From NCBI RefSeq assembly GCF_900108515.1, contig NZ_FNWW01000002.1:186001-250000 (forward strand): 64,000 bases of DNA, given 5' to 3'. This document shows, piece by piece, positions 19,262 through 59,819 of this stretch (positions within the stretch are counted from its first letter, which is position 1; every line of letters starts with the position of its first letter). The notes below the pieces were generated by a model that was not told the origin of the DNA, searched no databases, and worked only from the letters and a program-made list of their open reading frames with translations. This DNA comes from Halobacillus karajensis (GTDB lineage Bacteria > Bacillota > Bacilli > Bacillales > Halobacillaceae). The translations under genes and the position numbers were made by a program.

Positions 19262-19282
19262 TTATGAAAGGTGGAAACAACC

Positions 19283-20422
19283 ATGAAAATTTCATCCGCT
19301 TATATCCACATTCCTTTTTGTCAGCAAATTTGTCATTATTGTGATTTTACAAAGTTCTTTTATAATGAACGGCTGGCCGATGAGTATTTGGAGGCGTTAG
19401 AAAAAGAGATAAACACATATATCCCTGGAGAAAAAGCAAATGTCCGTACAATATTTGTTGGGGGAGGGACACCGACAGCTGTAAATCACAAACAATTGGA
19501 AAAACTTTTACAAATGATTGATGATCATTTTGACATTTCTGGTTGTGAAGAATATACGTTTGAAGCGAATCCAGGGGATCTTGATCAAGAAAAAGTAAGA
19601 TTGCTAAAAGCTTATGGCGTGGATAGAATCTCGCTTGGTGTTCAGGTTTTTGATGACGAAATGCTTGAAAAGATTGGGCGTGTCCATAAAGTGAAAGATG
19701 TGTACACGAATATTGATCGGCTGCTCCAAGCCGGATTATCCAATATCAGTATTGATTTAATGTATGCCTTACCTGGACAGACGGTAAAAGATTTTGAAAA
19801 AACGATCGATGAGGCTTTGCAGTTTGATTTGCCGCATTATTCTTCCTATTCCCTTCAAATTGAGCCGAAAACTGTGTTTTACCAACGCTATAAAAAGGGT
19901 AAGCTCTCCAAGGCGAAAGAAGATGATGAAGCTGAAATGTATGAGCTTCTCCAACAGAAGCTAACGAAAGCGGGAGCCATTCAGTATGAAATCAGTAACT
20001 TTGCTAAACCTGGGTTTGAAAGCAAACACAACTTGACATACTGGAATAACGAATATTATTTCGGGATTGGTGCCGGCGCTCATGGCTATCTGCCAGGGAA
20101 GCGAACGATTAATATCCGTCCTCTCCCAGCTTATGTTAAGAAAGCTTTTGAGGATGGAAAACCTATTCTGCATGAAGAACCTATTGGCTTGAAAGAACAA
20201 TTGGAAGAAGAAATGTTTCTTGGTTTGAGAAAATCCAAAGGCGTTTCTAAAGAGCTTTTCAGAGAAAAATACGGAAAAACACTTACAGATGTTTTTGGCC
20301 GCAAACTTACTGATTTGAAAAACCGTGAGTTAATAGCAGAAGATAGTGAAAACATCCGCCTTACACCCAAGGGACGTATTTTAGGAAATGAAGTATTTCA
20401 GGAATTTCTATTGGATGAGTAA
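19283..20422 (+). CDS. hemW: Radical SAM heme chaperone HemW
   Basis: A 379-residue radical SAM protein of the HemN-like branch now assigned to heme handling (HemW) and not coproporphyrinogen oxidation. The 4Fe-4S motif CQQICHYCDF (CxxxCxxC) is near residues 14-23, GGGTPT near 64 and the HemW C-terminal domain follows. AAAGGTGG precedes ATG 19283; the in-frame GTG at 19271 overlaps that site. The genuine HemN motif with a fourth nearby cysteine is not seen, which favours HemW. Confidence 0.92.
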   Translation: MKISSAYIHIPFCQQICHYCDFTKFFYNERLADEYLEALEKEINTYIPGEKANVRTIFVGGGTPTAVNHKQLEKLLQMIDDHFDISGCEEYTFEANPGDLDQEKVRLLKAYGVDRISLGVQVFDDEMLEKIGRVHKVKDVYTNIDRLLQAGLSNISIDLMYALPGQTVKDFEKTIDEALQFDLPHYSSYSLQIEPKTVFYQRYKKGKLSKAKEDDEAEMYELLQQKLTKAGAIQYEISNFAKPGFESKHNLTYWNNEYYFGIGAGAHGYLPGKRTINIRPLPAYVKKAFEDGKPILHEEPIGLKEQLEEEMFLGLRKSKGVSKELFREKYGKTLTDVFGRKLTDLKNRELIAEDSENIRLTPKGRILGNEVFQEFLLDE

Positions 20423-20432
20423 TCATCAGATT

Positions 20433-20463
20433 TCTTTTTCATTGTCGCAGACAATGAAAAAGA
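20433..20463. terminator. Perfect inverted repeat after hemW, probable terminator
   Basis: 14-bp arms ending TTTTTCATTGTC/GACAATGAAAAA around GCA; the T tract is inside the stem, so strength is uncertain. Confidence 0.5.
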
Positions 20464-20522
20464 GTGATGGTAGAGTTCATATTGAAGTGGAGATCAAGCT
20501 GTATTGTTCACGACGAACACAG

Positions 20523-20664
20523 TGTTGACCTTCATTTTGTTTGGCAAAGGCTGGAGGAGGATGAACACACTTCTGTTCATGGGGCGTTTAGGTACCCTTC
20601 TGAAGTACCTATAACGCACCCAAACACTTTAATGAGATCTAATCCTGGGGGATTGGGGTCAACA
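20523..20664 (+). ncRNA. Candidate multi-branched RNA between hemW and hrcA
   Basis: A long-range stem TGTTGACC/GGTCAACA (20523-20530 and 20657-20664) closes a region holding three hairpins: ATGAACA/TGTTCAT (20561-20567, 20574-20580), GCGT-AGGTAC/GTACCT-ACGC flanked by GGG/CCC (20581-20621), and AATCC/GGATT (20641-20645, 20650-20654). A weak open frame crosses it but has no ribosome binding site and no recognisable protein. The strand is unproven: the element precedes the hrcA promoter, and no obvious terminator follows on the plus strand. No known family is recognised. Confidence 0.38.
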
Positions 20665-20687
20665 GTTAAAAAAAAGGGCCATATCCG

Positions 20688-20754
20688 TTGACATCAATAT
20701 CCCCTTTTGATAATTTATTAATTAGATTTAGCACTCACCATAAACGAGTGCTAA
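20688..20754 (+). promoter_or_regulatory. hrcA promoter and CIRCE operator
   Basis: TTGACA at 20688-20693 with TAATTT 17 bp downstream (20711-20716), followed by a perfect CIRCE element, TTAGCACTC-N9-GAGTGCTAA, at 20728-20754. HrcA binds CIRCE and represses the operon until heat shock titrates GroE. Confidence 0.95.
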
Positions 20755-20769
20755 CAGGGGTGATCATCG

Positions 20770-21792
20770 ATGTTAACAGATAGACAGTTGCTCATTTTGC
20801 AGGTCATAATTGATGATTTCATTCTGACTGCCCAACCTATAGGTTCGCGGTCCATTGCTAAGAAAGATGCTGTGACATTTAGTTCCGCAACAATTAGGAA
20901 TGAAATGGCTGATTTAGAGGAAATGGGGTTCATTGAGAAAACCCATTCGTCCTCAGGGAGAGTCCCTTCTGAAAAAGGGTATCGCTTCTATGTCGACCAC
21001 CTTCTTTCTCCCTTACGTCTTACCAGTAAGGAAATTCTGACAATCAGAGAAGCTTTTGATGATAAGATGATGGAGTTTGAACGTGTGGTGCAAAAGTCAG
21101 CAGGGATACTCTCTGACTTAACCAATTACACGTCCATTGTGCTTGGACCAGAAGTGTTTGAGACAAAATTGAAGCAATTGCAGATTGTTCCTTTGTCAGA
21201 GCAGTCTGCCATCGCCATTTTGGTTACAGATACGGGTCATGTCGAGCACCGGGCTTTTAACGTTCCTGTAGAAATCAAGGGTGTAGACTTAGAGAAGATG
21301 GTGAACATCTTAAACAGCCGGCTCGAGGGAGTTCCTTTGGTGAAGTTGCATGAGAAACTCTATACTGAAATCAATGATCTATTGAAAACACATACGGATC
21401 AGCATGAAGAAGCTTTTCAATACCTTCGTGCCGCTCTCGTAGATGAACATCCTACAAAGCTGTATATTGGTGGGAAGACGAATATTCTTATGCAGCCTGA
21501 GTTTCGGGACCTTGAGAAAGTGCGGTCCCTCTACGCTACCATTGAACAGGAAAATGAAATGGCTGATTTACTCCGAACTGGGGAAGATGGGATTCAGGTG
21601 CGTATTGGACAGGAAAATCCTTATGATGCTATGCAGAACTGCAGCCTGATTACAGCCAGCTATCAACTGGGAAACGACCAGTACGGCACTATTGCACTGC
21701 TGGGGCCCACTCGAATGGAGTATAACCGTATGTTTTCATTAATGAATGTCTTATCCAAGCATATGACAAATACCTTCCGGGGCTGGTACTAG
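20770..21792 (+). CDS. hrcA: Heat-inducible transcription repressor HrcA
   Basis: A 340-residue repressor of class I heat-shock genes. The N-terminal winged helix (LTDRQLLILQVIIDDFI, PIGSRSIAKK, SATIRNEMADLEEMGFIEKTHSSSGRVPSEKGYRFYVDHL in pieces) is canonical; a GAF-like domain and dimerisation helices follow. It is the first gene of hrcA-grpE-dnaK-dnaJ, with its own binding site 16 bases upstream, so it is autoregulated. AGGGGTGAT precedes the ATG. Confidence 0.97.
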   Translation: MLTDRQLLILQVIIDDFILTAQPIGSRSIAKKDAVTFSSATIRNEMADLEEMGFIEKTHSSSGRVPSEKGYRFYVDHLLSPLRLTSKEILTIREAFDDKMMEFERVVQKSAGILSDLTNYTSIVLGPEVFETKLKQLQIVPLSEQSAIAILVTDTGHVEHRAFNVPVEIKGVDLEKMVNILNSRLEGVPLVKLHEKLYTEINDLLKTHTDQHEEAFQYLRAALVDEHPTKLYIGGKTNILMQPEFRDLEKVRSLYATIEQENEMADLLRTGEDGIQVRIGQENPYDAMQNCSLITASYQLGNDQYGTIALLGPTRMEYNRMFSLMNVLSKHMTNTFRGWY

Positions 21793-37825: not shown

Positions 37826-38040
37826 TACTTAATAACGTGTTGCGGAGAAGGAGAGTAGTATCCGGGGAAACTATTTCCAAGAGCGAGCTTGTGACGGTGA
37901 GAGACAAGCGGAAAAAGCCCGGGGAAGGCGTTCCTGAGCGACGGTGAAAGTGGCTTCCTATACATGAAGGGAGCAATTAGGGTGGAACCGCGGAGACCCC
38001 GTCCCTATGTCTTTGATAGACGTAGGGACGGGGTCTTTTT
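37826..38040 (+). promoter_or_regulatory. Glycine T-box riboswitch with terminator
   Basis: A T-box leader that reads the charging state of tRNA-Gly. Stem I shows the AGTA loop-E strand, the distal GGTGAGA loop near 37900, and GAA-GGC at 37924-37929, giving a GGC (Gly) specifier. The T-box sequence AGGGTGGAACCGCGG is at 37979-37993. The terminator stem GACCCCGTCCCTA/TAGGGACGGGGTC (37996-38035) ends in a T tract. The uncharged tRNA acceptor end pairs with GGNACC and favours the antiterminator. Confidence 0.95.
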
Positions 38041-38211
38041 CGTTGTCTGTGAAAGATAATGCGCACATGAGGATATAGAGGGTCCTTGTTGAAGGGCCGG
38101 AATTAGCACAAGCGGCCCCTGAAGCCTCTGTGGCCAATAATGCGATTTTGAGACTTCACCTTTTAAGGTGAACAAGGCACATAGAGCTTGAAATTTTTGA
38201 GGAGGGAAAGT
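38041..38211 (+). other. Long extra leader between T-box terminator and glyQ
   Basis: 171 bases without a gene. Two hairpins compete for the same bases: GGTCCTT/AAGGGCC (38081-38087, 38092-38098) and GGGCCG/CGGCCC (38094-38099, 38113-38118). TTCACCTT/AAGGTGAA lies at 38155-38172. The glyQ ribosome binding site GAGGAGGG follows. Confidence 0.5.
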
Positions 38212-59450: not shown

Positions 59451-59486
59451 ATGGAGGAGAGTCTTTTGGCTATAAGCTAGAGCGAA

Positions 59487-59599
59487 GGAGCACAGACCAT
59501 GACACTCCTGCGGAAAAACGGGCGATCCGAGACCCCGCAGTGTGGGTTTCACGAGGAGGCTCGGGCGTTCGTCCGCGGAAAGGGGATGGTCTGTGCTCC
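59487..59599. repeat. Palindromic dispersed-type repeat element
   Basis: Perfect 14-bp terminal arms GGAGCACAGACCAT (59487-59500) and ATGGTCTGTGCTCC (59586-59599) enclose a GC-rich centre containing CTCCTGCGG, GAGGAGGCTCGG and CCGCGGAAAG. Elements with these internal blocks recur in Bacillaceae intergenic regions from my memory of such genomes. Base composition differs sharply from the AT-rich flanks. Frames through it are artefacts. Confidence 0.6.
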
Positions 59600-59819
59600 T
59601 GGTGGCAAGAAAAAAGCTTGTAGGTCGCTCTTAAAACAGGGTATCCCACCTTAGTCAACCCAGGATGGATTCCAACCTGCAGGGCTGTTTTTTCTGATCC
59701 TGATAAGAAGGTTGGTTAAGTTTTTCATACGGAAATTATTATTTTTTAAAAAAACCCTTGAAACGAGGGTCAGAGCATGCTATATTATTTTTGTCGCTGA
59801 TTTAATAACAAAAAAGTTG
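59600..59819. other. AT-rich spacer between repeat and tRNA promoter
   Basis: No gene. A CCTGCAGG-GCTGTTTTTT stretch at 59676-59695 could be the outer end of the IS remnant. Confidence 0.35.

What the first reader, a model, noticed from the sequence alone, without database searches (positions are those of the whole stretch)
20523..20664. Multi-branched structure between hemW and hrcA
A perfect 8-bp long-range stem encloses three local hairpins, so four helices occupy a 142-base region with no protein. The gap is larger than I expect at this locus. It could be a small RNA, a structured leader read from an upstream promoter, or a mobile repeat that has settled beside the heat-shock operon.
Basis: partly seen in the sequence, partly recalled or inferred. 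Interest (0 to 1): 0.55.

Follow-up and report, generated by a model that had tools for sequence, protein, structure and literature searches.

The report
Decaying insertion beside heat-shock operon
In one branch of the salt-loving genus Halobacillus a stretch of 200-300 extra bases sits in front of the heat-shock operon; some of these species still show traces of a common dispersed hairpin repeat there, so the folded structure seen here is most likely a decaying remnant rather than a working RNA.

Summary
The helices exist and the region folds better than chance (z -4.2 for the 142 nt, about -5 for the whole gap on either strand), but 28 of 5235 windows of the same genome fold at least as well. 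The 8-bp closing stem is fragile: pairing probability 0.94 for the isolated span, 0.00-0.01 once the hemW-proximal sequence is included. The gap is enlarged: 347 nt here, 300-404 in 8 of 22 Halobacillus genomes, which form one clade, 98-100 in the other 14. The hrcA promoter and CIRCE lie downstream, so this is not the hrcA leader. It is single-copy, has no Rfam match, and is not kept in sister species. Two of the eight enlarged gaps (G001, G013; probably G008) hold degenerate copies of a ~137-bp covarying palindromic element, R1, found in 22 of 22 genus genomes and 107 of 150 genomes sampled from the order. For the window's own gap the link is only suggestive (p about 0.02-0.10). Best reading: an insertion in the clade's ancestor, probably of R1 type, now decaying, without demonstrated function. 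R1 itself, with one intact copy at 59474-59612, is the more interesting object.

The parts
19271..20422 (+). hemW (the ORF listing begins at a GTG); its end aligns with the other 21 genus genomes (stop 6 codons earlier in G013)
Evidence: ORF; C-termini.
20423..20667 (.). extra spacer, present only in an 8-species Halobacillus clade among the genus genomes searched
   Evidence: gap lengths, tree
20433..20463 (.). perfect 14-bp inverted repeat with 3-nt loop just after hemW; no T-run follows, so not a canonical terminator
   Evidence: (I2)
20523..20664 (.). the reported multi-branched span: 8-bp closing stem and local hairpins
20561..20580 (.). 7-bp hairpin ATGAACA/TGTTCAT
   Evidence: (I11); lost in the longest contexts
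20581..20621 (.). strongest hairpin of the reported span (15 pairs)
   Evidence: structure; core 20589-20611 (I12) at pairing probability 0.98 in all five contexts tried
20668..20675 (+). A-tract upstream of the hrcA -35, at the position of an UP element
   Evidence: sequence; aligned with A-rich sequence in ten relatives; UP-element role is inferred
20688..20716 (+). hrcA operon promoter, TTGACA-17-TAATTT with extended -10 TGA
   Evidence: read by eye; kept in all 22 genus genomes (sequences); the consensus scan did not list it, TAATTT having only 3 of 6 consensus bases
20728..20754 (.). CIRCE operator TTAGCACTC-N9-GAGTGCTAA
   Evidence: I6; both halves in every genus locus; the name CIRCE is recalled
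20770..21792 (+). hrcA
59474..59612 (+). intact copy of the dispersed palindromic element R1, for comparison
   Evidence: 110 bits (this copy is one of the 16 rows the model was built from)

Best explanation
A stretch of roughly 200-300 bases was inserted between the hemW stop codon and the upstream edge of the hrcA promoter, most simply once, in the common ancestor of eight Halobacillus species (gap lengths and tree shown; the single event is inferred). The likely source is the dispersed ~137-bp palindromic element R1, degenerate copies of which are still recognisable in G001 and G013 (shown) and probably in G008. Since then the insert has drifted, its hemW-side part diverging faster than fourfold sites of hrcA in the six-species subclade (shown on an alignment that is poor there). 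The hairpins in the window are what is left of, or has grown from, that palindrome-rich insert (inferred). They lie upstream of the hrcA promoter and CIRCE, so they are not in the hrcA leader and should not affect HrcA control; if transcribed at all they would be the 3' tail of hemW mRNA or read-through into hrcA (inferred).
For: Gap 300-404 nt in 8 of 22 genus genomes, 98-100 in 14 of 22; the 8 form one clade with support 99/97 on hemW+hrcA, 90/91 on hrcA alone; four further named Halobacillus species have 98-101. With model R1 run over the 22 hemW-hrcA loci (88,010 bases) the only two matches up to E 10 both fall inside the enlarged gaps, G001 (16.7 bits, E 0.023) and G013 (15.6 bits, E 0.045), both over the whole model. 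G013's insert also matches DNA in 18 of 44 family genomes including itself, best foreign E 6.6e-7; the seven foreign places fetched (L152-L158) all hold an element copy there, L152 a partial one. G001's insert matches one place in G039 at E 2.2e-4, an element copy too (L149). Against 42 element copies not picked by similarity to these inserts, G001, G008 and G013 score above 60 of 60 shuffles on both measures; the window's insert is reached by 1 of 60 (best score) and 5 of 60 (mean). In one search G008 is reached by 4 and 10 of 500 shuffles and 1 and 3 of 500 real windows. The window's insert gives no blastn hit to a sister's gap at E <= 0.05; the six hemW-side blocks of the six-sister alignment are 0.34-0.59 identical, the three promoter-side blocks 0.68-0.87, fourfold sites of hrcA 0.79; five of those six inserts show no excess folding.
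Against: For the window's own insert the element link is weak: no hit, none with the sequence profiles, best 7.4 bits (E 0.064 for the 501 bases searched, filters off), which only fits the 20581-20621 hairpin to the outer arms with the core skipped; in the larger test 20 of 500 shuffles and 21 of 500 real windows reach its best score, 36 and 50 its mean. G008 is not found by model or profile. No link is seen in G004, G020 or G011, and G003 is at most borderline (6 and 3 of 60; 99 and 143 of 500 shuffles). Model R1 is not independent of the inserts: 13 of its 16 rows come from loci fetched through the inserts of G013 (9), G001 (2) and G000 (2), and the 42 copies were partly found with R1. The window's insert folds far better than expected (z about -5), odd for a decaying sequence unless palindromes were kept or renewed. 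All eight species kept a long spacer, which could mean selection for length.
Confidence: 0.5

Rival explanations
1. Ordinary lineage-specific spacer growth unrelated to any mobile element: the hairpins in this species are accidental or came from local inverted duplications.
For: No significant element match for the window's insert by model or profile and only 0.04-0.10; single copy in the genome; 21 other loci in 464 kb fold at least as well; the closing stem is context dependent.
Against: Element remnants sit in the same gap in G001 and G013; the enlargement marks one clade; folding z about -5.
Confidence: 0.33
2. A species-specific structured RNA, either a stable 3' tail of hemW mRNA or a small RNA made between hemW and hrcA.
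For: Folding z -4.15 for 142 nt and -5.17 for 253 nt; perfect 14-bp hairpin just after the hemW stop; the + strand fold holds 10 G-U pairs against 4 on the - strand.
Against: No match in any of 21 other genus genomes at E <= 0.001, no Rfam match, no terminator-like site, similar z on both strands, negligible consensus fold in six sisters.
Confidence: 0.12
3. A structured leader of the hrcA operon transcribed from an upstream promoter, or a transcriptional insulator between hemW and hrcA.
For: The enlarged spacer is kept in all 8 species of the clade.
Against: The conserved hrcA promoter and CIRCE are downstream (sequences); 14 of 22 species do without the spacer; no terminator-like hairpin in any of the 22 gaps.
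Confidence: 0.05

Closest known systems
Dispersed palindromic element R1 (defined here; in the window at 59474-59612)
   Same: Similar length (137 model positions against 142 nt), hairpin-rich; degenerate copies in the same gap of G001 and G013; the best foreign DNA match of the window's insert (25 nt, 92%, E 0.006 for one of 44 genomes) lies in the outer arm of an R1 copy of G005
   Different: R1 folds as one long interrupted rod, not a multi-branch; the window's insert is not recognised by the R1 model or profile
Stem-loop repeat families of bacilli, such as Bhal-1 of Bacillus halodurans (74 bp, 36 copies) and bcr1 of the B. cereus group (147-167 bp)
   Same: Repeated, able to fold (tables seen as passages of PMC2267715)
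CIRCE/HrcA-controlled heat-shock operon leader
   Same: Same locus
   Different: The structure lies upstream of promoter and operator

Membership tests
Dispersed element R1 | Significant match to the R1 covariance model or sequence profile | tested here: not met
   For the window's insert: none, 7.4 bits, none. Met, weakly, for G001 and G013
Dispersed element R1 | Similarity to individual element copies above shuffled and real control sequence | tested here: inconclusive
   Window's insert: 1/60 and 5/60 shuffles; 20/500 and 36/500 shuffles, 21/500 and 50/500 real windows
Dispersed element R1 | Rod-like palindrome with outer arms and the GAGACCCC / GAGGAGGCT core | tested here: not met
   Fold is multi-branched; only a GGAGGAGGATGA trace lines up with the core (alignment)
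hrcA operon leader | Lies between transcription start and hrcA start codon | tested here: not met
   Promoter 20688-20716 and CIRCE 20728-20754 are downstream of 20664; the start was not mapped by experiment
Known RNA family (Rfam 15) | Match at gathering score | tested here: not met
   one search lists only sub-threshold matches
MITE-like mobile repeat | Several copies in the genome | tested here: not met
   One copy; TGTTGACC-N(100-130)-GGTCAACA occurs at one place
MITE-like mobile repeat | Target-site duplication at the insertion | tested here: inconclusive
   Junctions printed beside the short-gap genomes; no clear duplication by eye
Conserved RNA gene | Covariation supporting the helices among orthologues | not testable with these tools
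   No alignable orthologue of this insert was found

The most novel reading that the evidence does not exclude
The insert descends from R1, an order-wide family of ~137-bp dispersed elements for which I found no name, whose pairing is maintained by covariation (22 of 30 pairs with changes on both sides) while the outer arms change from copy to copy. Copies settle in operon gaps, here directly upstream of a heat-shock promoter, and then break down into species-specific hairpin clusters. R1 would be a structured mobile element, part of whose copies stand as divergent pairs about 120-500 bp apart.
Probability: 0.4. Interest if true: 0.45.

Novelty: new member of a known kind. Interest (0 to 1): 0.28.

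Why it matters
For the locus itself, little: it shows that a strongly folded, single-copy intergenic region can be a lineage-specific insert without a conserved function. The useful by-product is the R1 element: matches in 22 of 22 Halobacillus genomes (24 in G000; at most 150 are scored per genome, a limit that several reach) and in 107 of 150 genomes drawn from the order, with strong covariation and no Rfam match at gathering score over its intact copy in the window. If it is mobile, its carrier and mode of transposition would be testable questions; if it is a stabilising or regulatory RNA element it could affect many operons.

Tried and rejected
Coding gene in the gap: the 75-aa GTG frame at 20464-20691 has no evident counterpart among the frames of the other seven enlarged gaps, compared by eye; substitutions between G004 and G020, the one pair tested, fall 11/11/10 over the three codon positions. 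Duplicate of the hemW 3' end: local alignment scores reached by 80 to 275 of 300 shuffles in all 8 genomes. Phage or plasmid origin: no match in either collection; a 16-mer matched three viral contigs exactly, but blastn of the insert against the DNA then held gave no hit to them at E <= 0.05, so I took them as chance; a 23-mer matched none. Shared structure in the six sisters: consensus energy only -6.23 kcal/mol, covariation term -0.63; 8 of 22 predicted pairs do have changes on both sides, but on a poor alignment. R1 in hemW-hrcA gaps outside the genus: in 59 loci the only match up to E 0.1 is a copy in L040, 2.7 kb downstream of its hrcA; R1 in plasmids and phages: one copy searched, no match. 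A spaced core pattern found nothing in the window although a copy lies there, its spacing being wrong. Two of the weak DNA matches of the window's insert (L107, L108) are not element copies.

Literature, listings only unless said: lepA-hemN-hrcA operon; Halobacillus small RNA; palindromic or dispersed repeats in bacilli. The paper I followed up is PMC2267715 (passages); PMC2864571 (candidate structured RNAs) and papers on repeats of other bacteria (PMC3049150, PMC3733652) appeared in the listings and were not opened.

Full report
What is there. The window lies in a Halobacillus genome (hrcA 95% identical at protein level to H. litoralis 22505_10_Sand). Between the hemW stop (20422) and the hrcA start (20770) there are 347 nt. 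The 8-bp perfect stem at 20523-20530 / 20657-20664 and hairpins inside it exist; the minimum-energy fold has five. A hairpin of 14 perfect pairs at 20433-20463 lies just outside the reported span. The 142-nt span has z -4.15, the gap up to the A-tract z -5.17 on the + and -5.43 on the - strand. By folding energy corrected for dinucleotides, 28 of 5235 windows from 464 kb of the genome (the window plus 400 kb of contig C13, out of 4.07 Mb) do at least as well, 21 separate loci, so it is strong but not rare; those loci include what looks by eye like a T-box leader and a dispersed repeat.

The closing stem is fragile. Its mean pairing probability is 0.94-0.96 when the fold starts at or shortly before the stem, but 0.01 with the hemW-proximal 100 nt included and 0.00 in two longer contexts; the hairpin at 20561-20580 also goes to 0.00 in those two, while 20589-20611 stays at 0.98 in all five. 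Any transcript reading through from hemW would contain the competing sequence.

Position relative to hrcA. The promoter TTGACA-17-TAATTT with an extended -10 (20688-20716) and CIRCE (20728-20754) are downstream of the structure. The printed gaps of all 22 genus genomes keep this block, while the sequence upstream of it differs. The structure is therefore not part of the hrcA leader. The consensus scanner did not list this promoter; the assignment rests on reading and conservation.

The gap is enlarged in one clade. Of 22 genus genomes 8 have gaps of 300-404 nt (G000, G001, G003, G004, G008, G011, G013, G020) and 14 have 98-100. On hemW plus hrcA the eight form one clade (99/97), with the short-gap G012 next to it (89/89); on hrcA alone the clade has 90/91. 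Four further Halobacillus species from the named collection have 98-101. One insertion in the clade's ancestor is the simplest reading.

The insert turns over fast. The window's insert has no match at E <= 0.001 in 21 other genus genomes and none at that level in 43 other family genomes. Six sister species can be partly aligned with each other: the three promoter-side blocks are 0.68-0.87 identical, the six hemW-side blocks 0.34-0.59, below the 0.79 of fourfold sites in hrcA. Excess folding was seen in G000 (z -5.2), G013 (-3.3, + strand only) and weakly G003 (-2.0), not in the other five. A consensus structure of the six is negligible.

Link to a dispersed element. Searching the sisters' inserts, part of G013's (195 nt) matched places in 18 of 44 family genomes including itself, part of G001's (210 nt) one place in G039 besides itself, and part of G008's (200 nt) only itself. 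The foreign places that were fetched (L149, L152-L158) hold copies of a repeat that also lies intact in the window near 59500 (24 nhmmer matches in the DNA then held, some being one palindrome on both strands). Sixteen copies were aligned: 9 from loci fetched through G013's insert, 2 through G001's, 2 through G000's, and 3 near-identical ones from this genome. They gave a 30-pair rod in which 22 pairs show changes on both sides. A count with controls gives 89.9% paired cells against 74.5% in shuffles and at most 50.9% when slid, covariation 0.520 against 0.235 (0 of 500 shuffles), and further pair types 44 against 39.7 (24 of 500), the structure having been derived from the same alignment. Model R1 finds matches in 22 of 22 genus genomes at E <= 0.001 (24 in G000; at most 150 scored per genome) and in 107 of 150 genomes drawn from the order at E <= 1e-8, 62 of 83 genera. 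The intact copy in the window had no Rfam match at gathering score.

Run over the 22 hemW-hrcA loci of the genus (88,010 bases), R1 gave two matches up to E 10, both inside enlarged gaps: G001 16.7 bits and G013 15.6 bits. Two sequence profiles found the same two and reported nothing for the other six gaps. Against 42 individual copies not picked by similarity to these inserts, though partly found with R1, G001, G008 and G013 beat 60 of 60 shuffles on both measures; the window's insert was reached by 1 of 60 on best score and 5 of 60 on mean, G003 by 6 and 3, G004 by 36 and 46, G020 by 18 and 23, G011 by 13 and 18. A larger test (56 copies, leaving out loci fetched with the window's insert but including loci fetched with G001's and G013's; G020 not run) gave for the window's insert 20/500 and 36/500 shuffles and 21/500 and 50/500 real windows, for G008 4, 10, 1 and 3 of 500. 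The best foreign DNA match of the window's insert (25 nt at 92%, E 0.006 for one genome of 44) lies in the outer arm of an R1 copy in G005; of the 19 loci fetched for weak matches, L106 is the only one in which R1 was found. For the window itself the descent from R1 is therefore suggestive, not shown.

Conclusion. The finding is a real, locally strong but unconserved folded region in a clade-specific insert upstream of the hrcA promoter. The most likely history is insertion of an R1-type palindromic element, recognisable in two sister species, followed by decay. I found no evidence for a small RNA or a leader; transcription could not be tested. PMC2267715 (passages only) lists Bhal-1, a 74-bp stem-loop family in B. 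halodurans, which may or may not be the same family as R1; I could not compare sequences. That R1 has no published name is not established; I searched the held open-access library only.

Noticed in passing
window 59474-59612: Intact copy (110 bits) of a dispersed ~137-bp covarying palindromic element shortly before the tRNA cluster; 24 matches at E <= 0.001 in this genome, matches in 22 of 22 genus genomes and 107 of 150 genomes drawn from the order.
   Followed up: partly
L106, L149, L154, L155, L156, L157, L158; G000:C12:130320-130712 and G000:C13:538012-538445: R1 copies can stand as divergent pairs (first copy on -, second on +) about 120-500 bp apart, as if bounding a composite unit: 7 of 14 loci with matches, and 2 pairs among 29 places in this genome (one member of the second pair has only E 0.16).
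   Followed up: no
window 37951-38040: T-box-like leader (AGGGTGGAACCGCG followed by a hairpin with a T-run) before the ORF at 38188; not listed by Rfam at gathering score (T-box motif recalled).
   Followed up: no
L009 (G013), end of hemW: In-frame stop 6 codons before the usual hemW end.
   Followed up: no
gaps of G004, G020, G011, G001, G008, G013: The 40 nt directly upstream of the A-tract are on average 82% identical, ending in GAGGAACGAYTAAAAAAAA in five of the six, while the hemW side turns over; this is about the fourfold-site level (79%), so not clearly constrained.
   Followed up: partly
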